NCBI GenBank assembly: GCA_020852705.1
Contig: JADZAP010000001.1
Coordinates: 1-64,000 of the forward strand
DNA from: Ignavibacteria bacterium
GTDB taxonomy: Bacteria > Bacteroidota > Ignavibacteria > Tepidaquicellales > OLB5
DNA: 64,000 nt
Direction of reading: 5' to 3'
Shown here: positions 781 through 57,166 of the stretch, in pieces
Position numbering within the stretch: the first letter of the stretch is position 1
How the letters are laid out: the number at the start of each line of letters is the position of its first letter
Program-made: the position numbers and the translations under genes
Notes under the pieces: generated by a model
Told to the model about the DNA's origin: nothing
Databases searched by the model: none
The model's input: only the letters and a program-made list of their open reading frames with translations

Positions 781-2964
781 ATGAGAAACTTCCCAATATA
801 TAGACAACTTGATGAAACTGATTGTGGTCCAGCATGTTTGAAAATTCTCTCTTTATACTATAATTTGAGTTTTGATATTGAATATTTGAGGGATATATCA
901 GTAAAAAAGTCCGATGGAATTTCAGTCTATAATTTAATGAATGCCCTTAAGATATTAGGGTTCAATTCTTTGACCGTTAAAGCTTCTGTTGATACAATTG
1001 AGAGTTCAATTGAGTTACCTGCTATACTTCATTGGAATGATAATCATTTCGTTGTTTTATATAAAATATCTAGAAAATTCGTTTATATATCTGATCCCGC
1101 TTTTGGTCGTATAAAATATACAATTAAAGAATTTGAAAGTCACTGGTTAACTAAAAATTCTAATGAAGGAATATTAATAATTATTGAAAAATTTGAATTA
1201 GATCAAAACGTAAACTTTTCAAATGAGAAGTTGAAGTCTTACTTCAAATTGTATCTTAACTATTTGCATAATCATTTTCATAGTTACTTAATAATTTTTA
1301 TATTATTAATTTTAGGGAGCATTTTTATAGCTGTTTCTCCAAAACTAACCCAAATGATGGTTGATCATGGTATATCAAAATCGCCAGCTTCTTTAATAAT
1401 TAATCTATTTATTGCACAATTAATAATTATAGTTAGTAGCCTAAGTGTCGAAGTAATTAAGAATAAAATACTTTTAAAAATTGGTACTAAAATAAATATT
1501 AATATTATTTCAAAATATTTAATCAAGTTGATGAAGTTACCAATCTCATTCTATGATACAAAAGGGATTGGTGATCTACTTCAAAGAATAACTGATAATT
1601 TCAGAATACAATCTTTCTTAACAAATTCAATTCCAAATTTCATTTATTCAATTTTAACTATAATTATTTTTGGAGTAGTACTTTTTATTTTCAACTCTAC
1701 TATTTTCTTTTTTTATTTAATATTTACTATACTGAGTACTGTTTGGGTATTAGTTTTCATGAAAGCACGTAAAGTCATCGACTATAAAAGATTTAATAAC
1801 TATTCAGAAAATCAGAAAACACTTGTTCAAATTATCTATGGAATGAAGGAAATCAAACTTAATGGAATTGAAGAGAGTAAGCAAAATGAATGGCAGCAAA
1901 TACAAAATAAAATTTATGATAATTCTAAACATATTTTAAAAATTAGTCAATATCAAACAATTGGAAACAGATTTATTACACAAACTAAAAATTTAATCAT
2001 TTTATACTTTTGTATTTATCTAATAAACGATAATACAATGTCAATAGGAACAATGTTTGCCATTTCCTTTATAGTTGGTCAGTTAAATAGCCCAATAGAT
2101 CAAGCAATAACTTTTTTACAGAATCTTCAAGATGCAAATTTAAGCTTAGAAAGATTAAATGAAATTCATCTAATCCGGGAAGAAAGTGAGTCATGCAATA
2201 AGGAGTACATTATTTCTGAAGGTAATATAAAATTTAATAAAGTATCATTCAGATATAATAGAGATAGTGTAAGTAATGACTTACATGAAATAAATTTTTC
2301 AATACCCCAAAATAAGGTTACTGCAATTGTTGGTTATAGCGGGGGAGGGAAATCAACATTATTAAAGCTTTTGTTAAAATTTTATGATCCAGAATCTGGT
2401 AGTATTACTGTTGACGATAAAAATTTACAGGATATAGATTCTAAATATTGGAGAAAAAAATGCGGTGCTGTAATGCAGGATGGCTATATTTTTTCGGATT
2501 CAATCCTAAATAATATAGTTATGAATGTTAATGACTATGATAAGGAGAGGTTAGAGGAAACTATCCATATTTCATGTTTAGATGAATTTGTGTCTAATTT
2601 ACAATTCGGTTTAAATACTAAGATTGGAGAATGGGAGCATGGCCTTAGTATGGGCCAAAAACAAAGAATTCTAATTGCTAGGATAATATACAAAAATCCA
2701 AGTTATATATTTTTAGATGAAGCTACAAGTAATATTGATGCAAGAACAGAATCTAATATTATACAAAACGTTAAGAAATATTTAAATAATAAAACTATGT
2801 TAATTATTTCGCATCGTTTTAGTACAATATCTCATGCAGACCAAATAGTAGTAATCGGAAGTGGTAAGATTTCTGAAATTGGGACCCATAGTTCACTTTT
2901 GAATAAAAAAGGTGATTATTTCAGTTTAATGAATTATCAAACCCATAATATAAAAACTAACTGA
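781..2964 (+). CDS. Lanthipeptide leader-peptidase/exporter: C39 peptidase-containing ABC transporter (PCAT, LanT-like)
   Basis: The protein has 727 residues in three parts. The N-terminal C39 peptidase has catalytic Cys15 in DETDCGPACL, His89 in NDNHF and Asp105 in SDPAFG. A six-helix ABC membrane domain follows (about 160-440). The C-terminal ATPase has Walker A at 518-526 (GYSGGGKST), signature LSMGQ at 622-626 and Walker B YIFLDEAT around 642-649. The family cuts double-glycine leaders and exports the mature peptide across the inner membrane. The precursor encoded at 8692-8904 carries a Gly-Gly site, which fits. It is the first gene of the operon; the dehydratase follows after 2 nt. No clear Shine-Dalgarno precedes the ATG, as is common in Bacteroidota. 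Confidence 0.93.
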   Translation: MRNFPIYRQLDETDCGPACLKILSLYYNLSFDIEYLRDISVKKSDGISVYNLMNALKILGFNSLTVKASVDTIESSIELPAILHWNDNHFVVLYKISRKFVYISDPAFGRIKYTIKEFESHWLTKNSNEGILIIIEKFELDQNVNFSNEKLKSYFKLYLNYLHNHFHSYLIIFILLILGSIFIAVSPKLTQMMVDHGISKSPASLIINLFIAQLIIIVSSLSVEVIKNKILLKIGTKININIISKYLIKLMKLPISFYDTKGIGDLLQRITDNFRIQSFLTNSIPNFIYSILTIIIFGVVLFIFNSTIFFFYLIFTILSTVWVLVFMKARKVIDYKRFNNYSENQKTLVQIIYGMKEIKLNGIEESKQNEWQQIQNKIYDNSKHILKISQYQTIGNRFITQTKNLIILYFCIYLINDNTMSIGTMFAISFIVGQLNSPIDQAITFLQNLQDANLSLERLNEIHLIREESESCNKEYIISEGNIKFNKVSFRYNRDSVSNDLHEINFSIPQNKVTAIVGYSGGGKSTLLKLLLKFYDPESGSITVDDKNLQDIDSKYWRKKCGAVMQDGYIFSDSILNNIVMNVNDYDKERLEETIHISCLDEFVSNLQFGLNTKIGEWEHGLSMGQKQRILIARIIYKNPSYIFLDEATSNIDARTESNIIQNVKKYLNNKTMLIISHRFSTISHADQIVVIGSGKISEIGTHSSLLNKKGDYFSLMNYQTHNIKTN

Positions 2965-2966
2965 AA

Positions 2967-5675
2967 ATGAATATCTTTCCATATTTTTTACTTCGTGTTT
3001 CACCAGAATCAATGAATATTTTTGAAAACCTTAGCTTCGCAAAGGTCCCTAAATTGCTTGATAATTTTTACGATTTGGAAATGAAAAAGCAAGTATCCAA
3101 AGATGATATCAATGAAATATTATTCCAATATATAAAAGACATTAAAAGCGATGACCTTAGAAAAAAAATAATTAATCTGAAAAGGGATATATTCAATAAT
3201 AGGACTGCTGTTCAGAACACTCTGTTAGAATTACCGATTTATATTAAAAATAAATTGGATAATTTAAAACTGTTAGAGTTAGAGATAGTTGGTTTAAATG
3301 AAATGATAGAGTGCAATTATTATCAAGAATTGGATACTATCAATTATAATTTTAGAACACTTTTAAACACTGAATATTTTCTCAAAGGAGTTTTGCAATC
3401 AAGTGATAATTTATTAATAAGGTTAAAAGAATATATAAATAGTGAAACCGAATCGAAGTATCATTCAAGATCTAAATTTACTCTTTTAAAGTATTTGTCA
3501 AGAATTTTCACAAAAACATCACCATTCAGCACTTTTACTAATTTAGCCTTAGGGGTGTTTGACAATCAAAAAGCTTTAATTAATGTTGCTAATATTAATC
3601 ATAATAACAATAAAATTGTAAATCACAGAATAATATTAAATATTGGAATTTTGAGATTCTTGACGGGTGTTTTATTTCAATATTTTCCTATTACTAAAAA
3701 TTTTTATTTAGTACTCAATCCATCAATTAAAATAAAAAATAATTTTATAGAATTTCTTGTAAATACGAACAACATTGAATTTTTTCAAAGCCTTGAAATT
3801 AATGATAATATAAAATTTATTTTGAATGCATTTAAAGGGGTTAACAAAATTGAATTTAAAAATCTTTCAACAATTTTAAGTTCTAATTTTGAAGCTGAAG
3901 AAGATGAAATTAGAGAATTTATATATAAAGTTATTAGTATTGGTTTGCTCGAATTTGATTTTGACGTTTCAGGTTTAGATTACAATTGGGATGTAAAATT
4001 AGTACAACTATTAAAACAGTATAACTATCATAATGATAAAAATATTTTCAATCTGTATGAATCCCTAATTCAGATACGAAAAAAGATTACAGAATATGAA
4101 AAGGCTGATTTTGCAACAAGAGATCACATTTTGAATGATATATTTTCGGGTTTTAAAAAAGCTGCTCTAGATTTACACGAGGCTGCAAATCTTCCGAAGA
4201 TCGAAAGAGAACTTTATAAACTACATTCAAAAGAAGATGATGATTTTTATGAAGAGATTATTAACAAAGTTCACCTAGACAATTTTGAGAAATTTCACAT
4301 AACATACTTTAACTTTAGAAAAAATAATATTCTATTTGAAGATACATACTATGATGAAAAATTCGTATTCGATATTAAAAGGATTAATCATCATTTAACT
4401 TCTATCAATCAATTAATAGATAATTGTTTTGTAATGGATAAACTAGTGATTGAAAGAAAAAAAATATTAGATTTTTTTAAGTCTAAATTTGCTTTATGGG
4501 AAGAAGTAAATATTTTAGATTTTTATAAAAAATACTATGAGTTTAAAAAGGAAACCGGAGATACAGTTGATTATTCAATTTTGGATTTATCTAATGAAAA
4601 GATTAATGTTTGGTTAGAAAAATTAATAGACGTTTCAAGTAATGGGTATAATGCAAATACTCATTCTTTTATGCTGAAGAATGAGTATTTGCAAAAGGTA
4701 AATGAAATCTTAAACTTAAATAGAAAGTTTAAAAACACATCTTCACGATGTGTTTTTTTACAATACATAGATGGAGTAGAATCTAAAATTGTTATAAATA
4801 ATTACACTATTGGATTCGGTAAGTGGTTCAGTCGTTTTTTGCATTTGTTTGAAAGTTCTGTAACTGAAGAAATTCTGCATGACAATTTTATTAATAATGA
4901 ATATATTCAAGCAGAATACAACGGAGCCTCATATTTTAATCCTAACCTTCACCCACCTTTGTTAAATTATGAAATACGATCACCTGGTAGTCAGCATAGA
5001 TTGAATCTTGAGAATCAAATACAGGTAAGTAATATCTATGTTAAATATATGATTGACCAGGATCGAGTAATTCTAATTGATAAGCAAACAAATAAAGAAA
5101 TTTATATATATGATCTTGGTTTTGAAGCACAATCAAGTAAGTCGGAATTATTTAAATTGTTGTCAATATTTTCAAACTCAGAAATGATTTTCTTGCCACT
5201 AATAACAAGTAAGATCAGTAATTCTTACAAAAGGGCGGTTCTGAATGAGAAAGGCATTATTGAATATCCTGAAATAACCTTGGATTCTGACATTATTCTG
5301 CAAAGAAAAGTATGGTATATACCAGTTGATTATTTCGAAACTAAACTTAGTGATGTCGATTTTTTTATTAATATCAATTTAATGAGAAAACGAATAGGTA
5401 TTCCAAAAGAAGTTTTCGTTAGATTTTATTCTAAATCAATATATAATAAAATTAAGAAAACAAAAAATAATATTAAAAATTCAAGGGCGTCACATAAGCC
5501 ACAGTATATTAACTTTGATAATCCTTTATTAGTTGAATTACTGCATAAATTAGTTTTAAAATATAAAGAGGGAGTATTTATTGAAGAAATGAGACCTAAT
5601 TCAGATGAAATATTAAATATTGTCAAAGAGAAACATATCTCAGAATTAATTATACAATGGAAAAGCCATGAATAA
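2967..5675 (+). CDS. Class I lanthipeptide dehydratase, glutamylation half (LanB N-terminal domain)
   Basis: This 902-residue protein has the Lant_dehydr_N hallmarks: the opening PYFLLRVSPES, KTSPFSTFTNLALG at 183-196, and a conserved stretch around YNGASYFNPNLHPPLL. In the family this domain transfers glutamate from glutamyl-tRNA to Ser/Thr of the precursor. The elimination domain that completes dehydration is absent here and is supplied by the next gene, which overlaps by 8 nt. Such a split enzyme is known from pinensin-type clusters of Bacteroidota and from thiopeptide clusters. The gene is extremely A/T-rich in codon use, like its neighbours. Confidence 0.88.
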   Translation: MNIFPYFLLRVSPESMNIFENLSFAKVPKLLDNFYDLEMKKQVSKDDINEILFQYIKDIKSDDLRKKIINLKRDIFNNRTAVQNTLLELPIYIKNKLDNLKLLELEIVGLNEMIECNYYQELDTINYNFRTLLNTEYFLKGVLQSSDNLLIRLKEYINSETESKYHSRSKFTLLKYLSRIFTKTSPFSTFTNLALGVFDNQKALINVANINHNNNKIVNHRIILNIGILRFLTGVLFQYFPITKNFYLVLNPSIKIKNNFIEFLVNTNNIEFFQSLEINDNIKFILNAFKGVNKIEFKNLSTILSSNFEAEEDEIREFIYKVISIGLLEFDFDVSGLDYNWDVKLVQLLKQYNYHNDKNIFNLYESLIQIRKKITEYEKADFATRDHILNDIFSGFKKAALDLHEAANLPKIERELYKLHSKEDDDFYEEIINKVHLDNFEKFHITYFNFRKNNILFEDTYYDEKFVFDIKRINHHLTSINQLIDNCFVMDKLVIERKKILDFFKSKFALWEEVNILDFYKKYYEFKKETGDTVDYSILDLSNEKINVWLEKLIDVSSNGYNANTHSFMLKNEYLQKVNEILNLNRKFKNTSSRCVFLQYIDGVESKIVINNYTIGFGKWFSRFLHLFESSVTEEILHDNFINNEYIQAEYNGASYFNPNLHPPLLNYEIRSPGSQHRLNLENQIQVSNIYVKYMIDQDRVILIDKQTNKEIYIYDLGFEAQSSKSELFKLLSIFSNSEMIFLPLITSKISNSYKRAVLNEKGIIEYPEITLDSDIILQRKVWYIPVDYFETKLSDVDFFININLMRKRIGIPKEVFVRFYSKSIYNKIKKTKNNIKNSRASHKPQYINFDNPLLVELLHKLVLKYKEGVFIEEMRPNSDEILNIVKEKHISELIIQWKSHE

Positions 5676-6639
5676 ATCAAGTAATTGGATTAGTTTATAT
5701 CTTTATTATGAAGAACCTTGGGATCGTTTTATAAGTACAACGATTAATAATTATGTAAATCTATTATTCAAAAAAAAATTGATATCCAAGTTTTTTTTTG
5801 TGAGATATTGGGAATTAGGACCGCATGTTAGATTAAGGTTAAAAGTTGAAAATAAGGCAGATATAATTAATGTTACTAATATGTCTATGAAATATTTTTC
5901 AGAATTTTTTAGAGAAAATCCTTCTATAAGAAGGGATCTATCATTTATCGATAGTAATAAACTAATCGATAACAATTTAGTTGTTGAACGACAATATGAA
6001 CCCGAAACTGAAAACTATGGGGGGAAAGATTTCATGGATATAAGTGAATCTATCTTCTTTAGTTCTTCTAAGGCTGTAATATCCGCCATCAAAGCTAACC
6101 CTAAAATAGATTATTCTAGCAAAATCGGAATCTCAATATTACTGAATTTAGGATTATTAAATAGATTCAATCTAAGTAAAAGTTGTATTGTTGATTTCTG
6201 TAATTTTTACTTTAAGCATTGGTTAGAAGTTTATGATTTTCCCAAGGGATATTCTCAAACTCAGAAAATTAAAAAGGTTAAGATTATTTTCGATCAATTG
6301 ACAGAGAATCAATCAAAGGTGATGCTAAATTTATTGTCTGAGTATTGGAATAAATTACAAAAAAATGAATATAATGATCTTAAATGGCTTGATAATTGGT
6401 TAATGGAAATATCAAATATTTATAATATAATTAATAAAAAATCTTTTCAAAAATTATTGATAATACCTGAATGGTATAAGGAACTTTATAGCATTTCAAA
6501 TCTAACTTATAATAAAAAGTTGTTTTTCCTTTTTGAACGTCACGTTCATATGACAAATAATAGACTTGGTATTTATACAAAAGATGAGCCTTTTATTGTT
6601 TATTTAATTAATAAAATTTTATTGAATAATGGAAAATAA
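5668..6639 (+). CDS. Lanthipeptide dehydratase, glutamate-elimination half (SpaB_C / thiopeptide-type domain)
   Basis: This 323-residue stand-alone protein is of the SpaB C-terminal type. It opens with WISLYLYYEEPWDRFI, continues with FFFVRYWELGPHVRLRLK and ends with the family's typical FFERHVHMTNNRLGI near the C-terminus. In full-length LanB enzymes this region removes the glutamate added to Ser/Thr, leaving dehydroalanine or dehydrobutyrine. It overlaps the glutamylation half by 8 nt and the cyclase gene by 11 nt, so the three are almost certainly translationally coupled. The presence of a LanC rather than a cycloaddition enzyme next door argues for lanthionine rather than thiopeptide chemistry. 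Confidence 0.87.
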   Translation: MNKSSNWISLYLYYEEPWDRFISTTINNYVNLLFKKKLISKFFFVRYWELGPHVRLRLKVENKADIINVTNMSMKYFSEFFRENPSIRRDLSFIDSNKLIDNNLVVERQYEPETENYGGKDFMDISESIFFSSSKAVISAIKANPKIDYSSKIGISILLNLGLLNRFNLSKSCIVDFCNFYFKHWLEVYDFPKGYSQTQKIKKVKIIFDQLTENQSKVMLNLLSEYWNKLQKNEYNDLKWLDNWLMEISNIYNIINKKSFQKLLIIPEWYKELYSISNLTYNKKLFFLFERHVHMTNNRLGIYTKDEPFIVYLINKILLNNGK

Positions 6640-8635
6640 TAATTTTAAGATTGATTTAGATAAAGCAATATCTGATGAAATTATAGATATTGCAAATAAA
6701 TTAATCCAATATTCTAATAAAGATAAAAACGGGATTTTTTGGAAAACTCAAGGTAGGAATAATGATATTATCATTGAACAGATAAATGAAAATTTATATA
6801 ATGGTAATTCCGGAATTTTGATTTTCTTTTTGGAGTTGTATGGAATTACAAAAAAGAATGAATATTTAAGTATAGTTTTGCAGTCTTTAAATTGGATCGA
6901 AAAATATTGTCAAAGAAATCCCAAAACAAATTATTCTCTGTATGTTGGTCGAATGAGTTTAGTTTTAGTGTATTTAAGAATGTTTAGTATTTTTAATGAT
7001 GAAAAATACATTCGCAGGGCTATATATATATCCAAAAAATCACTAAATTTTATCCAATATCCTCAAAACATTGAATTATTAAGCGGGATATCAGGAACTT
7101 TATTGTGTTTACTAAAGCTTTATAAAGAAGTGAATGATAAATGGATTAAAGAGTATATAGATATTGGCGTAGATGTAATTACATCTAATTATTATGTTGG
7201 GGAAAAAGGAATTTTTTGGGACAGAGCAGATTATAATTTAAGAGGATTATGTGGTTTATCTCATGGTACTTCTGGAGTATCTTACGCGCTAATGGAGATT
7301 GTAGAATATTTTCAAAATTATAGTCTCACCCCATTTATTGAGGAATCAATTAAATATGAGAACTCTTATTATATAAATGAGGAAAAGAATTGGTCAGACT
7401 TTAGAAAACCTTTATATATTACAGAAAATGAAATTTACAACAAAAGACATGTATTTTATAATAATAGTTTCATAAAAAGAAAAAATGAAAAAAATATTAA
7501 TGCATGGTGTCATGGGTCTGCTGGAATTATTCTTAATAGATTTATGGCTTATAAATTATTTAAAAATATAAAATATTTAAAACAAGTTAAGGATAACCTG
7601 GACCCAGTAATTAATTATAGGATTTTAGATCAGAAAAAAAATGAGTTGTTTATTTTGTGTCATGGTAGATGTGGAAATTCAGAAATCTTATTTCAATTAT
7701 ATAATTATTATGGTGATTTAAATTATTTAAACAAGGCTAAATCTATTGGTCTAAAGGCAATTGAACAGAAAAGTCAATTAAAGAAGTATTTAAATGGAAT
7801 GGAATACTATGGTGCAAAGGAAGATCCAGGTTTGATGATTGGTGTTGCAGGGATTGGACACTATTTATTAAGACTTCTTAATCCTACGAAAGTTTCTTCA
7901 GTATTATTTCCTTCAGTAAATGCAGTTACAAGAGATGCTGATAATTATAAAAAAGTAAGATTTGATTTAGAGGTTACTTATCGAAAGCTAATTGATAAGT
8001 CATTTCCCAAGACATCTAATATTTTAAGATATTTCAATAAAATAATGTACGATGATATATTATCTAAGATTGTTGTTGCAAATCCTAAAGATATTAAAAA
8101 GTATTTTTATTCAAAAGTTAACAACAGAATGAAAGATTTAGCATTACTGGAAAAAAGAGTATTACGGGATGTCTTAAAATTCGAATGGGAAACTAATAAA
8201 GTATATTTATCAATAAGAAATGATTATCTGTTTAACAAAATGATAAATAGAGAATTTGATTCTTCAAAAAAACGACTGAAAAAATTAAAAATTCATGCTA
8301 CTGTTAAAGTAAGTCCATTCCTAAAAGTTATATCATGTAAATGGGATTGGACAAAGAATGATTACTTTGATTTATTGAAGGAGAATATTCAAGAGGAAGA
8401 ACATGCTAATATTTTACTAAAACCGAATCTTGAAAGTGTATATGCAATGAAACTAGATAATTTAAGTTACTTAATTCTAAAAAATATTTATCCTAATGAA
8501 TCTATCGAAAAATTAATTGATAGGATATCGAAAGTGTTAGATATTGATTCAAGTAAATACCTTAAAGAATCCCAAAAAGTGATTTTGAAACAGATACATG
8601 AATTAATCTTCTCAAAATTAATAATTGTTAATTAA
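6629..8635 (+). CDS. LanC-type lanthionine cyclase with C-terminal PqqD/RRE-like extension
   Basis: Residues 1 to about 425 form a LanC barrel: GNSGILIF, GLSHGTSGVSYAL, then WCHGSAGI with Cys294 and LCHGRCGN with Cys344 and His345, the three zinc ligands expected for thioether formation, and a final GVAGIGHYLLRL. Known LanC proteins have roughly 400-450 residues; this one has 668. The extra 240 residues are unrelated to the barrel. A helical linker (about 430-590) leads to residues 592-668, whose pattern (DNLSYLILKNI, then IEKLIDRISKVLDID, then a final helix ending KLIIV) looks like a PqqD-type RiPP recognition element. That would let the cyclase bind the leader peptide directly. The fusion assignment is inferred from pattern only. 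Confidence 0.85.
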   Translation: MENNNFKIDLDKAISDEIIDIANKLIQYSNKDKNGIFWKTQGRNNDIIIEQINENLYNGNSGILIFFLELYGITKKNEYLSIVLQSLNWIEKYCQRNPKTNYSLYVGRMSLVLVYLRMFSIFNDEKYIRRAIYISKKSLNFIQYPQNIELLSGISGTLLCLLKLYKEVNDKWIKEYIDIGVDVITSNYYVGEKGIFWDRADYNLRGLCGLSHGTSGVSYALMEIVEYFQNYSLTPFIEESIKYENSYYINEEKNWSDFRKPLYITENEIYNKRHVFYNNSFIKRKNEKNINAWCHGSAGIILNRFMAYKLFKNIKYLKQVKDNLDPVINYRILDQKKNELFILCHGRCGNSEILFQLYNYYGDLNYLNKAKSIGLKAIEQKSQLKKYLNGMEYYGAKEDPGLMIGVAGIGHYLLRLLNPTKVSSVLFPSVNAVTRDADNYKKVRFDLEVTYRKLIDKSFPKTSNILRYFNKIMYDDILSKIVVANPKDIKKYFYSKVNNRMKDLALLEKRVLRDVLKFEWETNKVYLSIRNDYLFNKMINREFDSSKKRLKKLKIHATVKVSPFLKVISCKWDWTKNDYFDLLKENIQEEEHANILLKPNLESVYAMKLDNLSYLILKNIYPNESIEKLIDRISKVLDIDSSKYLKESQKVILKQIHELIFSKLIIVN

Positions 8636-8637
8636 TA

Positions 8638-8669
8638 AAAAAGCAGCACATTCAATTGTACTGCTTTTT
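8638..8669. terminator. Bidirectional terminator between cyclase and precursor genes
   Basis: A 13-bp stem with one mismatch (8638-8650 against 8657-8669) is flanked by A runs on the left and T runs on the right, so it can end both the rightward biosynthetic operon and the leftward precursor transcript. Confidence 0.85.
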
Positions 8670-8691
8670 AGAAATAGCATAAATCAGGTGT

Positions 8692-8904
8692 TTAGCCAGT
8701 GCATTGTGGTCTGTCTCCATGGCAAGCTGAACATGCTGAAGAACTTGAGCAACCACTAACATCTGTTGTTTCGCAAGAGCTAGTAGAACATATACAGTAG
8801 GATGTTCCACCTTTAAGTTTTTTTACCTCATCTTCTTTCAACGAAGTAACAAAACTTTGAACTCTTAAATCTTCAAGTTTTAGTTTCCTTTTGAGATTTT
8901 TCAT
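8692..8904 (-). CDS. Pinensin-like class I lanthipeptide precursor
   Basis: This 70-residue peptide has an amphipathic leader of 33 residues ending in LKGG, the cleavage site for the C39 exporter. The leader segment LEDLRVQSFVTSL resembles leaders of pinensin-family lanthipeptides of Bacteroidota. The predicted core has 37 residues with 7 Cys (core positions 4, 6, 11, 19, 25, 28, 35) and 15 Ser/Thr, giving many possible (methyl)lanthionine rings. One Cys must stay free or pair in another way if six rings form. AGAAAGG upstream gives a ribosome site 8 nt from the ATG. It is transcribed towards the biosynthetic operon from its own promoter. Confidence 0.9.
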   Translation of the reverse strand: MKNLKRKLKLEDLRVQSFVTSLKEDEVKKLKGGTSYCICSTSSCETTDVSGCSSSSACSACHGDRPQCTG

Positions 8905-8938
8905 TTCATTAACCTTTCTAAGTTAAAGATTATTATGA

Positions 8939-8961
8939 AATTCATATATTTTATATGAATT
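8939..8961. repeat. 23-bp inverted repeat at the precursor transcription start (operator or 5' hairpin)
   Basis: Ten-base arms AATTCATATA (8939-8948) and TATATGAATT (8952-8961) surround a 3-nt centre. The repeat starts 5 nt downstream of the putative -7 box of the precursor promoter, where a repressor would block transcription start or where the RNA would begin with a hairpin. Confidence 0.5.
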
Positions 8962-8966
8962 GTAAT

Positions 8967-8997
8967 CAATACTAAATGTATTAATATAGAAAATCAA
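8967..8997 (-). promoter_or_regulatory. Bacteroidota-type promoter of the lanthipeptide precursor
   Basis: On the minus strand, TTG (8995-8997) is followed after exactly 20 nt by TAGTATTG (8967-8974), one mismatch from TAnnTTTG. Spacing and position, about 60 nt before the start codon, fit the sigma-A promoter of this phylum. Confidence 0.55.
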
Positions 8998-9040
8998 GGT
9001 ATTTATTTGTCTGTAAATTAATTACCTAGGAATTCGTAAA

Positions 9041-10780
9041 TTGCTGTTTAATAGAATGTTTAATTTTTTATTCTTATCATCGATAAATATGGAATATAAC
9101 ACACTACATAGATTAACCTTCACTAATAAATATGTAAAATATATTTTGAGTATTATTAGTGGCATCACTATTGGAATTTCTTATCCCCCAACCGGAGAAT
9201 ATTTTTGGTTTTTTATTTATTTTGGCATTATTCTGTTATTATACTTTGTGTATTCTGAAGATACTTTTAGGAGCGTTTTTAAATATACGTATTTTTCATT
9301 ACTGATTTCAAACATTATAGGCATTTACTGGATTTCTGCTTGGCATAGTGATGATACCTTCTTGAAAATTGGGGGAATACTTGCGATTATTATTCATCCA
9401 TTATTTAATATAATACCTATTTTAATCTTTTTCTTTCTTGTAAAATTAAACAATCAGAAAAAAAGATATGAACTATTATTTTTTTTCCCATTTCTATGGG
9501 TTGGTTATGAATTTTTTGACAACCAATGGCAGCTTAACTTCCCATGGTTGGAATTAGGTAATACAGAAGCATATAATATTAACAGAATTCAGTATATCGA
9601 GTATACAGGTATACACGGAGTATCTTTCTTAATTTGTTTGGCTTCGTCATTATTATTGTATTTATTTTTCCAAATTGTCTTTAAGAATTGGAAAATATAT
9701 TCATTTAAGTCATTTATTCTGTTTTTAAGTATAATTATTATATTAATCTTTCCTAATATATTTTCGTATTTTACTTTGAAAAATATTCAAAATAATATTA
9801 ATAATTCATATAACTCAGATGTATTATCTATTAGCGTCATACAAACTAATATCGATCCATTCGAAAAATGGAAAGGAGATCCAAATTGGGTTGTTGAAAA
9901 AAATTTGAAAGGGATAAGAGAAGCTTTAAAATCAAATCCAGATCTAATAATTCTAAATGAAACTGCAACTCCTTTTTTCTTTCTAGAAGATCATAATCTA
10001 CTTAGGTCAAAGAAATTTACTGATATTGTAGATTCCAGTATGAAAAGTTTATTAATGGGCATACCACATTTAGAATATTACAAAGATACAATAAACGTCC
10101 CGGAGGATGCTTTGAGGATGAGCAATAGTGGTAAATTGTATGATAAATTTAATTCCGCAATCCTAATTGAACCAAATTCAAAATTAAGCAATTCAACGAT
10201 ACACAAAAAAGTGAAATTAGTTCCATTTAGTGAAAAATTTCCTTATCAAAGTTATTTAAAAAGTCTTAAAAGCTTATTTACTTGGCAAGTTGGAATTTCT
10301 GGTTGGCAATTTGGTAAAGTCAATACCTTGTTTAATTTTAAAAGTCCAAAACATAATATTAATCCAAAATTTTCTGTGTTAATATGTTTCGAATCGGTTT
10401 TTAGTGATTACGTTCGAGAGTCAACTAAAAATGGTGCTCAATTCTTAGTTATTATTACAAATGATGGTTGGTTTGGTCACACATCAGGACCAATCCAACA
10501 TGAGAGATATGCTGTATTAAGGGCAATTGAAAATCGTAAATGGGTTAGTCGATGTGCCCAAACTGGAATATCATGCTTTATAGATCCATTTGGGGTTATT
10601 CATACTACCATTCCTTATGGAGAAGAAGGAGTAATTACAGAAAAAATAATACTTAATAGTGAAAAGACTTTTTATTCTGAGAATGGTGACATATTGGGTA
10701 GAATTAGTTTTTATTTACTAGGATCTTGTATTTTAATTCTTCCAATTTATGGAATTTTTTTAAAATATGGTCGTAAGTGA
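9041..10780 (+). CDS. lnt: Apolipoprotein N-acyltransferase (Lnt)-like membrane protein
   Basis: The 579-residue protein has an N-terminal membrane domain (several helices up to about residue 250), a periplasmic carbon-nitrogen hydrolase domain and a final helix. The hydrolase triad is visible: Glu in LNETATPFF (codon 9959-9961), Lys in KKVKLVPFSEKFP, and Cys in LICFES (codon 10385-10387), followed by TNDGWFG. Lnt adds the third acyl chain to lipoproteins in the inner membrane. A TTG at 9041 has AGGAA 8 nt upstream; ATGs at 9056 and 9089 are alternatives, the last giving a more usual N-terminus. It is divergent from the precursor gene, and whether it belongs to the lanthipeptide cluster is not known. 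Confidence 0.85.
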   Translation: MLFNRMFNFLFLSSINMEYNTLHRLTFTNKYVKYILSIISGITIGISYPPTGEYFWFFIYFGIILLLYFVYSEDTFRSVFKYTYFSLLISNIIGIYWISAWHSDDTFLKIGGILAIIIHPLFNIIPILIFFFLVKLNNQKKRYELLFFFPFLWVGYEFFDNQWQLNFPWLELGNTEAYNINRIQYIEYTGIHGVSFLICLASSLLLYLFFQIVFKNWKIYSFKSFILFLSIIIILIFPNIFSYFTLKNIQNNINNSYNSDVLSISVIQTNIDPFEKWKGDPNWVVEKNLKGIREALKSNPDLIILNETATPFFFLEDHNLLRSKKFTDIVDSSMKSLLMGIPHLEYYKDTINVPEDALRMSNSGKLYDKFNSAILIEPNSKLSNSTIHKKVKLVPFSEKFPYQSYLKSLKSLFTWQVGISGWQFGKVNTLFNFKSPKHNINPKFSVLICFESVFSDYVRESTKNGAQFLVIITNDGWFGHTSGPIQHERYAVLRAIENRKWVSRCAQTGISCFIDPFGVIHTTIPYGEEGVITEKIILNSEKTFYSENGDILGRISFYLLGSCILILPIYGIFLKYGRK

Positions 10781-14514: not shown

Positions 14515-14585
14515 CGGGGTGTCGTATACCGGTAGTACGCATGCTTTGGGAGCATGTCGACAGGGTTCAATTCCCAGCACCCCGA
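14515..14585 (+). tRNA. tRNA-Pro(TGG)
   Basis: A cloverleaf can be drawn: acceptor CGGGGTG/CACCCCG, D stem GTAT/GTAC with GG in the loop, anticodon stem CATGC/GCATG with loop TTTGGGA (anticodon TGG), T loop TTCAATT and discriminator A. CCA is not encoded. One A-A mismatch in the T stem (CAGGG/CCCAG) is unusual. The 3' end lies 57 bases from a tyrosine integrase gene, so the tRNA probably served as the integration site. Confidence 0.88.
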
Positions 14586-14641
14586 CATTCTGAAATTTAT
14601 AAATATTAATATTTTGTTAAGGATTTTTGAGACTGATTGTC

Positions 14642-15724
14642 TTAAGAGACTACCTTATCTTGCATTTGTGCCGTTAGCGTGCCGTTGAGATTAAATGCAG
14701 GTTCAAGAGTCTGCATTGCCTTGTTTAGTGATGATAGATTTACATGAGTATATCGCATTGTCATCTTAATATCTGAATGACCCAAGAGATCTTTAATCGT
14801 TAATATTGTAGCTCCATTTGCCTCCAGGTGTGATGCAAAGGTATGTCGCAGGTCATGCCAGCCTATTCTTCGCAAACCTGCTTTTTTGCACAGCCTGATA
14901 AGGTTGTTTAGGCAGTAATTGTACTTAAGAACGTCACCATCTGCTTTACAGAAAATATAACTGTCTTTACCGCTTCTTTGTCTTAACACCTGATAAACAG
15001 ATTCGATTAATGGGATTATTCTTGTCCTGTTGTTTTTCGGCGTACCCTCAAATCCTCTGACATTGTTTCTTTGAACAGTTAATAATCGCTTTTCAAAGTC
15101 GATATCTTCTGCCTTGAGTGCAATCAGTTCACCGATTCGCATTCCTGTTCGTGCCGCAGTCAGGATCATATCATACCATAAGCCACTAGCGCTGCTTAAC
15201 AACTGCTGTAGCTCGGTTTCAGAGAGAAAATCGAATGTTTGAGGTGGTACTTTCAGAAGCTTAATTCGCGGGATATGTTCTATAATCTCCCATTCAAGAG
15301 CAGCTTTAAAGCAACAACTTAAGATTGACAGGTTGTTATTAACGGTTTTGGCAGATAACTTTTCATCTTGTATAAGCTGACTCTTAAACTCCTCTATATC
15401 ATAGGTCGTAATTTTGTTAATGATTTTTTTTCCGAAGAAAGGAATAATTCTTCTATTTAGAAGGTAACTTCTTATTTGGATTTCCGAAGGCTTGTTATTG
15501 TTCTTAACGTTAACATCAAACCATTTTAGAGCAATGTCTCTGAATATAGGTGGGGTAACAGGCTCCGATTCTTCTAATGGTTTTCCAGAAGCCAGTTTTT
15601 GCCTGATAACAACTTCGTATGCTTTAGCCCCTCTACATGTATTTAACGGGCTTCGTTTTCTATACCGCCGATGGTTAAAGCCTATGTCAATCCAGAAAGA
15701 TTTTCCACGCTTTATTACAGCCAT
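14642..15724 (-). CDS. Tyrosine recombinase/integrase of the tRNA-Pro element
   Basis: The 360-residue protein has an N-terminal SAM-like core-binding region (about 60-165) and a C-terminal catalytic domain. Visible catalytic residues are Arg in ARTGMRIGEL, the HDLRH box, His in LLGHSD and the nucleophile Tyr in MRYTHVN. Its 3' end faces tRNA-Pro, the usual arrangement for site-specific integration into a tRNA 3' end. The excisionase-like gene lies only 3 bases upstream on the same strand, so the two form one transcript. Confidence 0.92.
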   Translation of the reverse strand: MAVIKRGKSFWIDIGFNHRRYRKRSPLNTCRGAKAYEVVIRQKLASGKPLEESEPVTPPIFRDIALKWFDVNVKNNNKPSEIQIRSYLLNRRIIPFFGKKIINKITTYDIEEFKSQLIQDEKLSAKTVNNNLSILSCCFKAALEWEIIEHIPRIKLLKVPPQTFDFLSETELQQLLSSASGLWYDMILTAARTGMRIGELIALKAEDIDFEKRLLTVQRNNVRGFEGTPKNNRTRIIPLIESVYQVLRQRSGKDSYIFCKADGDVLKYNYCLNNLIRLCKKAGLRRIGWHDLRHTFASHLEANGATILTIKDLLGHSDIKMTMRYTHVNLSSLNKAMQTLEPAFNLNGTLTAQMQDKVVS

Positions 15725-19534: not shown

Positions 19535-20494
19535 ATGTCTGCCTACGTAAGAAAACTGAAGAAAGGCACTTTTTGGTACTATAAATTCAAATACAAAGGA
19601 ACGGTTTATTTCTCCGAATGTATTTATGAATCAAAAAGCGAGGCGAAGAGAGCTGAAGCCATTAAATACGAGGAAGTGAGCAACAAAAAGAAAAATACCC
19701 TTGAGCCTGTTTTGAGCCTTAAAGACGCTATCATTGAAAGACTGGATTATGTTCAGGCTAAAAAAAGCATTGACTACTATAAGGATAATAAGAGATATTA
19801 TTCAATGTTGTTAAAATCTCTTGGCAATACTCCAATAGACATCATTACCCGAAAAGATATTAATGATTTTATATTCAAGCAGGCAAAAGAAGCAAAGGAG
19901 AAGGGCAGGGATAATTATGCTGTTAACTATATGCTCAACTTGTACAAAGCGCTTTTTAATTATGCTATTGAAAGTCATGAGTTGAATATGAGAAATCCCT
20001 GTTTAGGTATAAAACCCTTTGCAGTGAAAAAGAAATTAAAATATATTCCGAGTGATGAAGAAATTGAAGCAGTAAGAAAACTGTGTGATCCAGCCCAAAG
20101 ACTCTTAATTGATTTCGTATCTGAAACGGCAGCACGGATTAACGAACCGCTTAAAGTTACAGGGAACGATATATTTGATACTTATGTAGTATTGTATACA
20201 AAAAAAAGTAAAAACTCGAATGTAGTTCCCCGAAAAGTGCCAAAACCTGATTGCATTAAAGATATTAAACTTGAACCTGATGAAAGGTTATTTAAATTAT
20301 GGTCTGATACGCCGAAGTTTTTAGAAAGGAAGATTCAGACTTTAGGGCAGCATTGTTGGAATTGGCACAATCTTAGACACAGGCGGGCAAGTATTTGGCA
20401 CACTGTCGAAAAACGACCTTTATATGAAGTAATGTGCTTACTAGGACATAGCCAACTATCTACAACTCAAAAGTACCTTCAAATGTTAGGATAG
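19535..20494 (+). CDS. Tyrosine recombinase/integrase of the second module
   Basis: The 319-residue protein has an N-terminal strand region (GTFWYYKFKYKGTVYFSE), a helical core-binding domain (about 65-155) and a catalytic domain with Arg in SETAARINEPL, HNLRH box, LLGHS and nucleophile Tyr in TTQKYLQM. AGGAGG sits 7 nt before the ATG. It shows no close sequence similarity by eye to the integrase at 14642. A terminator follows, so it is not co-transcribed with the defence operon. Confidence 0.9.
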   Translation: MSAYVRKLKKGTFWYYKFKYKGTVYFSECIYESKSEAKRAEAIKYEEVSNKKKNTLEPVLSLKDAIIERLDYVQAKKSIDYYKDNKRYYSMLLKSLGNTPIDIITRKDINDFIFKQAKEAKEKGRDNYAVNYMLNLYKALFNYAIESHELNMRNPCLGIKPFAVKKKLKYIPSDEEIEAVRKLCDPAQRLLIDFVSETAARINEPLKVTGNDIFDTYVVLYTKKSKNSNVVPRKVPKPDCIKDIKLEPDERLFKLWSDTPKFLERKIQTLGQHCWNWHNLRHRRASIWHTVEKRPLYEVMCLLGHSQLSTTQKYLQMLG

Positions 20495-20866: not shown

Positions 20867-22843
20867 ATGACGGCTATACTTATAATAATGGCTATAGTAA
20901 TTCTAATTATCATTGTGGGACGTTATATGGTTGATAAAAGCCAGAATACAGACAGATTAAAGTCAGCTTCTAAAAACAAATATGATTATCAAAGATCAAA
21001 AATAGACTTAAATAATCAATTGGAAAATAGTAAACAAGACATGAAAATTACTATAACAACGTCAAGTAGCTATAAAGATGATTCAATTATTGATATTACA
21101 GGTCAATCAAGTAACATTCCATCGAACATCGATTTGAAGAAATATGCCGATGGTGTTCCTTTTTGGGCACACCATTATGTCTTTTCTTATGATGAGATAA
21201 CGAGAGCCACATATGAACAAAAAGGTTTTTATTCCTTTTTCAAGGAAAGTTTTCTCAAGGGTGAATATTTAGATCTGGAAGGAAACACAAATTATGCATT
21301 CATTCTATTATTTGATCTGCTAAATGAATATGAAACCAATAAAAAATTACTTAAGCTTGAAAATTATCTTAATATATTAGGGCAATATTATCCCAAGACA
21401 AAGCCTTATGGGAATGCTAACTTTGCTAAAATATTAGCGGGTGATGAAAGTGATGATGCTGCAAAAATAAAAAGCGAAAATGCGTACAGTCAAAATTATT
21501 ATTATAACAATGACTATTGGTCTTTAGGTACAAAATATAAAGCTAAACTTAAGCTTAACGATGAGGAGGTTAAACTTCTTAACAAACTTTGGTATCCATC
21601 AAATAATTTCTGTGGTATTGAGTATTGTTTTATGGAAATTCTCAAGCTCTATATTTCAGTAATAGTAGAATTGAATAAAAAATTTATCCAAGAAGGAAGT
21701 ACTATTGATTCACAATTCACCTTGGTGGCAGATGTCGTTGCAAGAAAACACTATAATTACAGAAATGGAAGTTCTAATTACAAGTATTGTTTAGAAACAA
21801 CTACAAAAGAATTATATTCTTATATCTTTAAACATTGCGAAAATGCGGTTCGAGAATGTTATGGGCATAAACGTAAGATAAGTACTGATGTATATTATTC
21901 AAATAAAGAAGTCAAAGCAATATATGAGTCTATAATTGTTTCCCGGGTATCTGAAATACTTCCGATTCTGATTAATACGGTTGCTCCCCCTGACGAAGAA
22001 ACAGAAATTGAGCTTTACGCAAAAAACACTAGTCGGTGGAAATCAACATTTGAAGAGTTAACTAAAAATTACGATGGAAATATTAAGAAGTTTATTGACT
22101 CGATTCATATTTTAGCAAAACTAAATAAAAGGAATCCATCAATCGAAAATATTTTCTTTGATGCTTCTAAATTTATTGCTAAGTACGATAAGGAATCTGC
22201 ACTTACTCTTTATGTTCATTACTTATATTATGATTTAATGTCAACTTCTTTTGATAATAAACCATTCACAAAAACTATTCAAAAAAATTTATTTAAGACG
22301 AATGAACAATTACATGATTTTGAGATAATTGTAAGTGAACTGATTAATGACAAAAACCTAGACAAGGCTATAAATGGTGTTTCCAAAGTATATGAGATAA
22401 AGAGAAAGAAAATTCAACTTGATACCGCTTCAATAAAAGAAGTTCAACAACAACATTCTGGAACAGTTGAACTTTTGAACGAATATTTAAAGGATGATTA
22501 TGAAGATGAAAATAATTCAATAAGAGCTGAAGAATTAAATATAGATGAAATTATTATGGAAATAGTCCCCAAAAATGATAGATCTCAGAAATCAGTGACC
22601 GAAAGCACTATTGACTTTACTCCACTACATTTAGAAACATTAGAGTTGTTTGTAAAAAGTAATTATTCTGTACCTCAATTTGATCTTGATATATTTGCAA
22701 AATCAAAGGGAATCTTTAAAAATCAATTAGTAGAAAGTATCAATGAAGCATGCTATGATTTATTAGATGATGTGTTAATTGATGAAGAAGATGAATATTA
22801 CACAATTAATATTAATTATTATCAAAAAATTTCTGCAAAATGA
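20867..22843 (+). CDS. sngA: Shango component: membrane-anchored TerB-domain protein (SngA-like)
   Basis: The 658-residue protein starts with one transmembrane helix (about 3-20) and a polar linker. A TerB-N-like domain begins near residue 99 (VPFWAHHYVFSYDEI, then EGNTNYAFILLFDLLNEY and LNILGQYYPKTKPYG). The middle is helical, and the C-terminal ~70 residues (TLELFVKSNYSVPQF to LIDEEDEYYTINI) look like a TerB-C winged-helix. TerB domains were named after tellurite resistance but occur in phage-defence loci. The gene overlaps the ATPase gene by 4 nt. In the Shango system the TerB protein acts with an ATPase and a helicase; here it may place the complex at the membrane. Confidence 0.8.
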   Translation: MTAILIIMAIVILIIIVGRYMVDKSQNTDRLKSASKNKYDYQRSKIDLNNQLENSKQDMKITITTSSSYKDDSIIDITGQSSNIPSNIDLKKYADGVPFWAHHYVFSYDEITRATYEQKGFYSFFKESFLKGEYLDLEGNTNYAFILLFDLLNEYETNKKLLKLENYLNILGQYYPKTKPYGNANFAKILAGDESDDAAKIKSENAYSQNYYYNNDYWSLGTKYKAKLKLNDEEVKLLNKLWYPSNNFCGIEYCFMEILKLYISVIVELNKKFIQEGSTIDSQFTLVADVVARKHYNYRNGSSNYKYCLETTTKELYSYIFKHCENAVRECYGHKRKISTDVYYSNKEVKAIYESIIVSRVSEILPILINTVAPPDEETEIELYAKNTSRWKSTFEELTKNYDGNIKKFIDSIHILAKLNKRNPSIENIFFDASKFIAKYDKESALTLYVHYLYYDLMSTSFDNKPFTKTIQKNLFKTNEQLHDFEIIVSELINDKNLDKAINGVSKVYEIKRKKIQLDTASIKEVQQQHSGTVELLNEYLKDDYEDENNSIRAEELNIDEIIMEIVPKNDRSQKSVTESTIDFTPLHLETLELFVKSNYSVPQFDLDIFAKSKGIFKNQLVESINEACYDLLDDVLIDEEDEYYTININYYQKISAK

Positions 22844-24153
22844 TAGACAATATTAAACCTAAAGAAGCTACTTCCATTATCAATTCATTGATTAGTGGTG
22901 TAGTCCCTAGAATTGGAGTACAACACATAACCGTTGGACGCTCTGAAGAAATAAATGCAGCTGTAGCAGCCTTACAGGATGTAAAAAATGGACATAGTAT
23001 GGTAAAATTTTGGATTGGAGATTTTGGCTCCGGTAAGTCCTTTATGCTCCATTTATTAAACACAGTTGCTTTAAAACAAAAGTTTGTCGTAGCAAATGCT
23101 GACTTTACCCCTGATAATCGTTTGTATTCAAATGACGGAAAAGGTGTTGCACTATATTCTGCCATTATAGATAATATCTCAATTCAAACTAAACCTGAAG
23201 GTGGAGCATTACCAACTTTACTGGAAAAATGGATTGAACAAATTATCACGAAAACGGCAGGTGAAAATAATATTTCATTGACTGAAATTCGTAATGAGCA
23301 ATATCTAGAGCTTATTCAAAGAAATATCATGAAAACCATTAACGAGATTACGGATGTCGGGGGTTTCGACTTTGGAACTGTTGTAATGAAATACTATGAG
23401 GGCTATATCAAAGACGATGAGCATTTAAGGCGAAGCGCCCTGAAGTGGTTGAAAGGCGAATATAGAACCAAAACTGAAGCAAAACAGGACCTAGGGGTTA
23501 GAGAGGTTATCAATGATTTGAATTATTATGATATGCTCAAAAACTTTTGTAAACTTTTTGTGAATATGGGTTATAGCGGTTTTATGGTAAATCTTGATGA
23601 AGCTATCAATCTCTATAAGATTTCAACTTCTGTTATGAGAGAAAAAAACTATGAAAAAATACTTACAATATATAACGATTGTTTTCAAGGAAAAGTAGCT
23701 AACCTGTTTTTCAATTTTGCAGGTACTAAGGAAGTTTTAGAAAATGAACGCAGAGGACTTTTCAGCTATAGTGCTTTAAAATCAAGACTTCTTACAAATA
23801 AGTTTGAAACATTAGAAATAAGAGATTTTGCACAACCGGTAATTCGTTTAATGCCTTTAGACCACAATGAAATATTTGTATTACTTAAAAAACTTAAAGC
23901 AATTTTTAATTATAATTATAAAACCGACATTCCAATAAGTGATAATGAAATTCAACTGTTTATGGAGGAATTGTTCAATAAACCTGGTGCATCAGAATTT
24001 TTGACACCAAGAGAAGTAATAAGAGATTTTTTAAATATTCTGAATATCATTCGTCAAAATCCTACAGTTGATATAAATAAGTTATTTGGAGAACTTGAAA
24101 TTTCAGACGAAAGACCTGATGAAGTTTCATTAGACAGCATTGAAGAACTATAA
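22840..24153 (+). CDS. sngB: Shango component: BrxD/DUF2791-type P-loop ATPase (SngB-like)
   Basis: The 437-residue protein has the DUF2791 opening (AINSLISGVVP-type start, then GVQHITVGRSEEI), Walker A GDFGSGKS at 60-67, and a Walker B-like GFMVNLDEAINLY around 245. The same family includes BrxD of BREX type 2 and phage-protection ATPases. Its start overlaps the TerB gene by 4 nt and its stop overlaps the helicase start by 1 nt, so stoichiometric expression is likely. It probably couples ATP hydrolysis to DNA sensing or loading of the helicase. Confidence 0.85.
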   Translation: MIDNIKPKEATSIINSLISGVVPRIGVQHITVGRSEEINAAVAALQDVKNGHSMVKFWIGDFGSGKSFMLHLLNTVALKQKFVVANADFTPDNRLYSNDGKGVALYSAIIDNISIQTKPEGGALPTLLEKWIEQIITKTAGENNISLTEIRNEQYLELIQRNIMKTINEITDVGGFDFGTVVMKYYEGYIKDDEHLRRSALKWLKGEYRTKTEAKQDLGVREVINDLNYYDMLKNFCKLFVNMGYSGFMVNLDEAINLYKISTSVMREKNYEKILTIYNDCFQGKVANLFFNFAGTKEVLENERRGLFSYSALKSRLLTNKFETLEIRDFAQPVIRLMPLDHNEIFVLLKKLKAIFNYNYKTDIPISDNEIQLFMEELFNKPGASEFLTPREVIRDFLNILNIIRQNPTVDINKLFGELEISDERPDEVSLDSIEEL

Positions 24154-54200: not shown

Positions 54201-54501
54201 ATGGAATCCTAACTTTTTCAACAAGAAGTACATGGAATGTTTCATTGTTATGCAGAAGGTCAGGCGAGTATATTCTTAAAACTTTTTGGACTGCCTGTTC
54301 CAGGGCATCAACCGGAATATGAGGGTTAATTTTGGTTACAGCGTTTCTTAACTTATCCGCCAAAACCACATCTTCAAACGATGTCCTTGCAGGATTTGAG
54401 CCTTCGGGGGATATATCCGGACCGTAGGCATAGTCCCACTCCAGCTTAGTAAGCTCTTCCAATGCAAACTCTTCGATATGTGATTCAGTGATTGGTTTCA
54501 C
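51286..54501 (-). CDS. hsdR: Type I restriction enzyme, R subunit (translocase and endonuclease)
   Basis: The 1071-residue length is typical. The N-terminal nuclease has RPDVILFINGLPMVVMELK with Asp143, Glu157 and Lys159. The SF2 motor follows with Walker A TTGSGKSLSM, DEAH in IADEAHRTQYG, TGTPI, and the MRGHTLMQTISRVNR motif VI. A helical C-terminal region binds the methylase. It cuts DNA at a distance after translocation when HsdM2S meets unmethylated sites. It is separated from hsdS by four cargo genes. Confidence 0.95.
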   Translation of the reverse strand: MKPITESHIEEFALEELTKLEWDYAYGPDISPEGSNPARTSFEDVVLADKLRNAVTKINPHIPVDALEQAVQKVLRIYSPDLLHNNETFHVLLVEKVRIPYQQDGFERSHEIALVDFDNPLNNDFLAVNQFTILHNNQNKRPDVILFINGLPMVVMELKNPAEENATIDHAFEQIQTYKAVIPSLFTYNEICIISDGIECKAGSISAGKGRFVPWKSIDGSKDASRFIPQMETLIKGMLNPQALLDIIRNFIVFEKSRKEDPGTGITQVITVKKLAAYHQYYAVNKAVTQTITAASPSGDRKGGVVWHTTGSGKSLSMVFFTGKLVLSLNNPTIVVITDRNDLDDQLFDTFANSTQLLRQEPHQAESREDIKKLLKVASGGIIFTTIHKFWPDEGKEVYDELSDRQNIVVIADEAHRTQYGFEAKYKDIVDKSTGEVVGKRVAYGFAKYLRDALPNATYIGFTGTPIESSDVNTPAVFGKYVDIYDISQSIADKTTVKIYYESRLAKVNLNEEGKRLIGEFDKDLEESEELSEAEKAKAKWSKLEAIIGNKERLKNLASDIVTHFEERRATMDGKAMIVAMSRRIAVDLYNEIIKIKPEWHSDDFNEGSIKVIMTAVSSDGPVMAKHHTTKNQRKTLADRMKDPSDSLKIVIVRDMWLTGFDVPCLNTMYIDKPMRGHTLMQTISRVNRVFQDKPGGLIVDYLGIATDMKKALSFYSDSGGKGEPAEDLDRAVDVMLEKLEVVTQMFSEKCKSEGDILLEEPSAYINSAFDYKRFFTASSRDKLSIILQSEEHILGLDDGKERFIKEVILLSQAFSLSISKPEAAAITELVAFFQAVKARLTKFTGTGSGERDLNLESIIKQIVNEAISSEKVVDIFDAAGLKRPEIPILSEEFMLEIQGMKHKNLALELLKKILNDEIKSRLKTNLVKGKALLEMLEASIKRYQNNLLSTAEIIQELINIAKEVKEADKKGEKLGLSTDEVAFYNALEVNESAVQVLGDDTLKHIAREIADKVRSNATIDWTIRESARANLMRLVSRTLRKYGYPPDMQQKAIDTVLKQAELMADFWVNE

Positions 54502-54513
54502 AATTATATAAAA

Positions 54514-55020: not shown

Positions 55021-55021
55021 A

Positions 55022-57164: not shown

Positions 57165-57166
57165 AT

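What the first reader, a model, noticed from the sequence alone, without database searches (positions are those of the whole stretch)
781..8904. Compact pinensin-like lanthipeptide cluster with a new precursor core
Seen: C39-ABC exporter, split LanB, LanC and a precursor with leader LEDLRVQSFVTSL and GG site. The core of 37 residues has 7 Cys and 15 Ser/Thr, including an SSSS run, and ends CTG. Known: pinensin-type clusters of Bacteroidota use a split LanB. Inferred: the product has up to six or seven rings, and the odd Cys number leaves a free thiol or an unusual link. No immunity gene is visible.
Basis: partly seen in the sequence, partly recalled or inferred. Interest (0 to 1): 0.75.

Follow-up and report, generated by a model that had tools for sequence, protein, structure and literature searches.

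The report
Pinensin-family lanthipeptide gene cluster
A five-gene set in an uncultured Ignavibacteria bacterium looks able to make, ring-close, trim and export a small cysteine-rich peptide of the pinensin family; the peptide is new, the machinery is of a known kind, and an extra copy of a lipoprotein-acylating gene beside it may be its missing immunity or tailoring gene.

Summary
Window 781-8904 carries a C39-ABC exporter, a split LanB (902 + 323 aa), a 668-aa LanC and, convergent on the minus strand, a 70-aa precursor with a pinensin-family leader (NF038180, E = 1.8e-12), a GG site and a 37-residue core with 7 Cys and 15 Ser/Thr. About 23 related clusters (Ignavibacteria, Cytophagales, KSB1, Aminicenantes and others) share most of this set. 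It is a new member of a known kind: pinensin-type class I lanthipeptides.

The host is Ignavibacteria. 'No immunity gene' is doubtful: the gene beside the precursor is a second, divergent lnt copy, while the housekeeping lnt sits elsewhere in its conserved place.

New details: LanC has a conserved ~230-aa C-terminal extension ending in an RRE-like fold (weak evidence). The elimination subunit has Asn where NisB Arg826 is expected. The usual membrane-fusion protein gene is missing.

Seen in a relative: three pinensin-leader precursors fused to an intein-like HINT domain.

The parts
781..2964 (+). Peptidase-containing ABC exporter (C39 + TMD + NBD), predicted to cut after GG and export the peptide
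   Evidence: Pfam C39 5.5e-31, ABC_membrane 1.2e-30, ABC_tran 4.4e-29; conserved in relatives
2967..5675 (+). LanB glutamylation subunit (split LanB, TbtB-like), 902 aa
   Evidence: PF04738 2.1e-13; nearest solved structure TbtB 6EC7/6EC8, profile E 1.4e-36; model pLDDT 83.5, VIA-align Z 28 to TbtB
3696..3980 (+). RRE (leader-binding domain) inside the LanB glutamylation subunit, about residues 244-338
   Evidence: Model residues ~246-333 align to solved RRE/PqqD folds: 3DEE Z 8.8, PqqD 5SXY Z 5.9, PbtF RRE 8T19 Z 5.6, TruD Z 5.5
5668..6639 (+). LanB glutamate-elimination subunit, 323 aa; Asn116 stands where NisB Arg826 is expected
   Evidence: PF14028 9.9e-36; FFxRYWExGPHxRLR and HMTNNRLG motifs; column check over 17 sequences
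6629..8635 (+). LanC cyclase (about residues 1-430) with a C-terminal extension, 668 aa in all
   Evidence: PF05147 6.7e-58; nearest NCBIfam model is LanM TIGR03897 4.8e-68; Zn ligands Cys294, Cys344, His345 and His212 invariant in 23 relatives; model pLDDT 87.4
7922..8632 (+). [quoted passage not shown]
   Evidence: Extended LanCs of 645-776 aa in the relatives; DSSP order on the model; profile match to the LanB RRE beats 150/150 column shuffles and is the best of 74 segments, but hhalign probability is only 9%
8638..8669 (.). Hairpin with T/A runs, probably a shared (bidirectional) terminator of the operon and the convergent precursor gene
   Evidence: folding z-score -2.85
8692..8904 (-). 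Precursor peptide gene, 70 aa: pinensin-type leader ending KGG, 37-residue core with 7 Cys and 15 Ser/Thr; AGAAAGG ribosome-binding site upstream
   Evidence: NF038180 E = 1.8e-12
8905..9040 (.). Divergent intergenic region between precursor and lnt; holds a perfect 10-bp inverted repeat AATTCATATA-aaa-TATATGAATT at 8939-8961 (possible operator; weak evidence)
9041..10780 (+). Extra copy of lnt (apolipoprotein N-acyltransferase); candidate immunity or tailoring gene, association with the cluster inferred only. True start may be ATG 9089
   Evidence: TIGR00546 4.8e-74; second lnt G000:C45 in the conserved housekeeping place; catalytic-type residues kept

Best explanation
A pinensin-family class I lanthipeptide cluster. 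The precursor's leader (KLEDLRVQSFVTSL) is bound by the RRE of the LanB glutamylation subunit, which glutamylates core Ser/Thr using Glu-tRNA; the separate elimination subunit removes glutamate to give Dha/Dhb; the LanM-related LanC, with Zn bound by Cys294/Cys344/His345, adds Cys thiols to them, giving up to seven (methyl)lanthionine rings; the C39-ABC exporter cuts after GG and exports the product. The LanC extension probably gives the cyclase a leader- or partner-binding domain of its own. The gene set and catalytic motifs are shown; the reactions, ring number and biological role are inferred.
For: Domain matches for every part; pinensin leader model over its cut-off; two same-order relatives with the corresponding genes and convergent pinensin-leader precursors; about 23 wider relatives with extended LanC, most with split LanB and pinensin-leader precursors where the contig allows; leader matches of eight relatives' precursors confirmed with NF038180; LanB model matches TbtB, MadB, MibB, NisB; LanC model matches lanthionine cyclases at Z 34-38. 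Published pinensin-type features agree: split LanB, GG leader with C39 protease, and Bacteroidetes LanCs of family I 17 that are related to LanM domains (PMC7268733).
Against: No product is known. The elimination subunit has Asn at the NisB Arg826 position, which 15 of 17 relatives keep as Arg. The LanB subunit departs from the family at 22 of 108 near-invariant positions, more than most relatives, though branch lengths are not extreme. The membrane fusion protein gene is missing from the cluster and no homologue was found in the genome by one query.
Confidence: 0.87

Rival explanations
1. A decaying or partly non-functional relic: the operon is still open but export and elimination are compromised.
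For: No membrane fusion protein gene (445 aa in Cytophagales/KSB1, 335 aa in G025, 176 aa in G010, absent here); Arg826-to-Asn change; many departures in LanB; patchy presence, LanC in 3 of 13 same-genus genomes including this one.
Against: All five frames are open with tight spacing, RBS and terminator; LanC departs at only 3 of 51 near-invariant positions; the window's branches are long but not extreme in all three trees; AAC at Asn116 is not a single-base error from an Arg codon.
Confidence: 0.1
2. The elimination subunit works by a non-canonical route, because Arg826 is replaced, and the peptide has unusual stereochemistry or leftover unmodified or glutamylated residues.
For: Known syn-lyases replace Arg826 by a hydrophobic residue and Tyr by Lys (PMC9486935); the window has Asn at this position.
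Against: The Tyr that anti-lyases keep (RYW), both substrate Arg (HVRLR), Glu823 and His961 equivalents are all present, so the syn-lyase pattern is not met.
Confidence: 0.12
3. The extra lnt belongs to the cluster, as self-resistance by protecting or duplicating the lipoprotein-acylation target, or as a tailoring enzyme that acylates the exported peptide's N-terminus.
For: Second lnt in this genome only; the housekeeping copy sits in the genus-wide HU - lnt - ispF - radA neighbourhood; no second intact copy in the other same-genus or same-family genomes searched; about 7 of 161 other lnt-bearing genomes of the phylum sample show two or more matches; immediate divergent neighbour of the precursor; low GC like the cluster (0.277 vs 0.327 for the housekeeping copy).
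Against: No lnt lies in any related cluster held; adjacency alone is weak; low GC is shared by other genes of the genome (GC3 within about one s.d. of the mean); lipoprotein acylation has not been reported as a lanthipeptide target in the papers searched.
Confidence: 0.3

Closest known systems
Pinensin-type class I lanthipeptides (pinensins A/B, Chitinophaga pinensis; NCBIfam NF038180; family I 17 of Walker et al. 2020, PMC7268733)
   Same: Leader model, GG site with C39 exporter, split LanB, LanM-related LanC
   Different: New core; Ignavibacteria host; no membrane fusion protein gene; Asn at NisB Arg826; extra lnt next door. Whether the pinensin LanC has the extension, and how alike the cores are, was not tested
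TbtB/TbtC-type split dehydratases (thiomuracin)
   Same: Separate glutamylation and elimination proteins; LanB model closest to TbtB (Z 28)
   Different: No YcaO or pyridine synthase gene; LanC present; so thioethers, not a thiopeptide
LanM cyclase domains (LicM2, CylM)
   Same: LanC part is nearest to LicM2 by sequence (E 1.3e-46) and TIGR03897
   Different: No LanM dehydratase domain; an extension lies C-terminal to the cyclase
Same-genus Ignavibacteria cluster G010:C66 (JAUQWQ010000158)
   Same: Order exporter - LanB - LanB - LanC with convergent pinensin-leader precursors, each with 7 Cys
   Different: Two precursors with other cores; keeps a short 176-aa membrane-fusion-like gene; keeps Arg826; about 32% identity in LanC

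Membership tests
Pinensin-family lanthipeptide | Leader matching NF038180 above its cut-off | tested here: met
   47 bits vs 24, E = 1.8e-12
Pinensin-family lanthipeptide | Split LanB (glutamylation and elimination on separate proteins) | tested here: met
   PF04738 and PF14028 on adjacent genes
Pinensin-family lanthipeptide | LanC related to LanM cyclase domains | tested here: met
   TIGR03897 E = 4.8e-68 best NCBIfam match; LicM2 best PDB match; PMC7268733
Pinensin-family lanthipeptide | GG leader end with C39-ABC exporter | tested here: met
   KGG at 31-33; PF03412 5.5e-31
Pinensin-family lanthipeptide | Core similar to pinensin A/B | not tested
   No pinensin core sequence in the data held
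Class I lanthipeptide | Cyclase zinc ligands and catalytic His in LanC | tested here: met
   Cys294, Cys344, His345, His212 invariant in 23 sequences
Class I lanthipeptide | Glutamate-lyase residues (NisB Arg784, Arg786, Glu823, Arg826, His961) | tested here: inconclusive
   All present except Arg826, which is Asn116
Class I lanthipeptide | Lanthionine or methyllanthionine in the product | not testable with these tools
   Needs expression and mass spectrometry
[quoted passage not shown]
   Order fits; weak but specific match to the LanB RRE; no Pfam or PDB match; extension not folded alone
syn-glutamate lyase | Hydrophobic residue at Arg826 and Lys in place of the anti-lyase Tyr | tested here: not met
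   Asn at Arg826; Tyr kept

The most novel reading that the evidence does not exclude
The cluster makes a multi-ring pinensin-like lanthipeptide using a cyclase that carries its own leader-binding (RRE-like) domain, and a paralogue of the lipoprotein N-acyltransferase Lnt either protects the producer or N-acylates the exported peptide: a link between lanthipeptides and lipoprotein maturation that I found in none of the papers searched.
Probability: 0.15. Interest if true: 0.8.

Novelty: new member of a known kind. Interest (0 to 1): 0.45.

Why it matters
It extends pinensin-type lanthipeptides to Ignavibacteria with a new core and shows, through about 23 relatives in several phyla, that this group's LanC has a conserved, so far unnamed C-terminal extension that may be a leader-binding domain. 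That makes a direct question testable: does the cyclase recognise the leader itself? The extra lnt offers a concrete immunity or acylation hypothesis for a family whose self-protection is not visible in the cluster.

Tried and rejected
Free thiol from an odd Cys count: rejected on chemistry and because 23 of 41 related precursors have odd counts. Syn-lyase reading of the elimination subunit: pattern not met. LanC extension as a known Pfam domain: no convincing match (Spa1_C at E = 0.069 in one member is not significant); PDB sequence search gave only chance-level matches. VIA-align of the whole LanC model lists only cyclase-like folds spanning residues 1-447, so the extension is untested by that search; BFVD search gave nothing with E <= 0.001. 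Accelerated decay of the cluster: branch lengths do not show it. Mobile-element ends around the cluster: no clear direct repeats flank it, and the contig begins at window position 1, so the left border cannot be seen. Membrane fusion protein elsewhere in the genome: one query found none, which is not proof. Literature: no paper found on Ignavibacteria lanthipeptides beyond passing mentions, on HINT-fused lanthipeptide precursors, on RRE-LanC fusions, or on Lnt with lanthipeptides; the library lacks most subscription journals.

Full report
CHECK OF THE OBSERVATION. A + strand operon holds a C39 peptidase-ABC exporter (781-2964), a LanB glutamylation subunit (2967-5675), a LanB elimination subunit (5668-6639) and a LanC (6629-8635); the gap and overlaps between them are 2, 8 and 11 bp. 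The precursor (8692-8904) is on the opposite strand and convergent, with a hairpin terminator between (8638-8669). Its 37-residue core has 7 Cys and 15 Ser/Thr as stated. The leader matches NF038180, pinensin family, at E = 1.8e-12, and the genome has no other such match and no other LanB.

HOST AND DISTRIBUTION. The window starts at the first base of a 180.6-kb contig in a 2.94-Mb genome. Same-genus and same-order relatives correspond to records titled Ignavibacteria bacterium. LanC relatives occur in 3 of 13 same-genus genomes, this one included, and 4 of 44 in the order, so the cluster is patchy; its GC is 0.25-0.26 against about 0.34 for other genes of this genome, which fits acquisition but does not prove it. 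A scan of 84,980 species genomes with a LanC alignment, by patterns lying in the cyclase part, brought 51 loci; 24 of these (L024-L047) carry relatives of this type, from Ignavibacteria, Cytophagales (Adhaeribacter, Rhodocytophaga), KSB1, Aminicenantes, Acidobacteriota, Chloroflexi and others.

WHAT THE ENZYMES SHOW. The glutamylation subunit is closest to TbtB (profile E 1.4e-36; VIA-align Z 28) and keeps an internal RRE at about residues 246-333 that aligns to solved RRE/PqqD folds (3DEE Z 8.8, 5SXY Z 5.9, 8T19 Z 5.6). The elimination subunit keeps the Tyr, both substrate Arg, and the Glu823 and His961 equivalents, but has Asn116 at the NisB Arg826 position; 15 of 17 relatives have Arg and one has Leu. 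Arg826 is described as helping proton removal in anti-elimination (PMC9486935). The codon AAC needs two changes from an Arg codon, so a single base error is unlikely. The syn-lyase pattern (hydrophobic plus Lys) is not met. LanC keeps the zinc ligands and catalytic His and is nearest to LanM cyclase domains, as reported for LanCs of the pinensin precursor family I 17 (PMC7268733).

THE LANC EXTENSION. LanC has 668 residues, about 240 more than the cyclase fold. The relatives that are complete have 645-776 residues with a matching extension. [quoted passage not shown] Pfam and PDB sequence searches found nothing convincing. Profile comparison with the LanB RRE of the same family aligns them collinearly, scores above all of 150 column shuffles, and the RRE is the best of 74 segments of LanB/LanC profiles; but hhalign's probability is only 9%. 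I treat an RRE-like domain as likely but unproven (about 0.6). No paper found here describes an RRE on LanC.

EXPORT. Complete relatives carry a HlyD-type membrane fusion protein of about 445 aa; it is 335 aa in G025, 176 aa in G010 and absent here. One search of the own genome found no homologue, which is weak negative evidence. Export may use another adaptor.

THE EXTRA LNT. Gene 9041-10780 (possible start 9089) is an apolipoprotein N-acyltransferase (TIGR00546 4.8e-74), divergent from the precursor. The genome has a second lnt at C45:73390-74988, 50% identical; that copy sits between HU-like genes and ispF/radA exactly as in all same-genus genomes examined, and groups with them in the tree. 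The window copy branches outside the genus with the longest branch (0.64) and keeps the residues conserved in Lnt. No other same-genus or same-family genome searched has two intact copies; second hits in G003 and G014 look like fragments of a broken or split gene. In a phylum sample about 7 of 161 other lnt-bearing genomes have two or more matches. None of the related clusters held has an lnt nearby. A target-duplication immunity gene or an N-acylating tailoring enzyme are both possible; chance adjacency is too.

THE PRODUCT. Each of the seven core Cys has Ser or Thr upstream within the core, so up to seven thioether rings are possible and no thiol need be free. The ring pattern cannot be read from sequence. 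Cores are very diverse across the family, as in other pinensin-type clusters. Antifungal activity is known for pinensins (reviewed in PMC8358304) but cannot be transferred to this core.

VERDICT. An authentic pinensin-family lanthipeptide cluster: a new member of a known kind, with some unusual details worth testing. The most surprising thing met in this work lies outside the window: HINT-fused pinensin-leader precursors in a related Ignavibacteria genome.

Noticed in passing
L020:12405-14764 (-) = G025:C3 about 110404-112763; also L039: Three paralogous pinensin-leader precursors (241-256 aa) each run leader - Cys-rich core - intein-like HINT domain (PT-HINT E = 7.7e-17 to 9.8e-21, starting CFLEDTLVNT, with TENH and ending VHN-K) - short Cys tail CSxxGSCNCPTTDSPLGGW. 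They suggest self-cleaving lanthipeptide precursors; found in 1 of 391 class genomes.
   Followed up: partly
L044:13464-20549 (+), Ignavibacteria bacterium Clear-D13: At least 14 tandem precursors with pinensin-type leaders and very different Cys-rich cores beside one extended LanC and one elimination subunit: a possible combinatorial set.
   Followed up: no
window 9041-10780: Second, divergent lnt copy beside the cluster; housekeeping copy is elsewhere in its conserved neighbourhood.
   Followed up: yes
window 8939-8961: Perfect 10-bp inverted repeat AATTCATATA-aaa-TATATGAATT in the region between the precursor and lnt; some shorter palindromes are expected by chance in such AT-rich DNA.
   Followed up: partly
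window 14515-15724: tRNA-Pro (14515-14586) with a tyrosine integrase gene (14645-15724, -) just beside it; a second integrase-like gene at 19535-20491: likely integrative element right of the cluster.
   Followed up: no
window 51286-60035: Genes that read as a type I restriction-modification set (HsdR-like 1071 aa, HsdS-like 411 aa, HsdM-like 526 aa) with small genes between; identified by reading only.
   Followed up: no
window 20867-26279: A TerB_C-domain protein, an ATPase-like protein and a DEAD/DEAH helicase in a row, reminiscent of a defence-type gene set.
   Followed up: no
L046:8503-8802 and L047:41-331: Precursors with TCANTCAHTCADTCG-type Thr-Cys repeats and only half of the pinensin leader model, without GG.
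   Followed up: no
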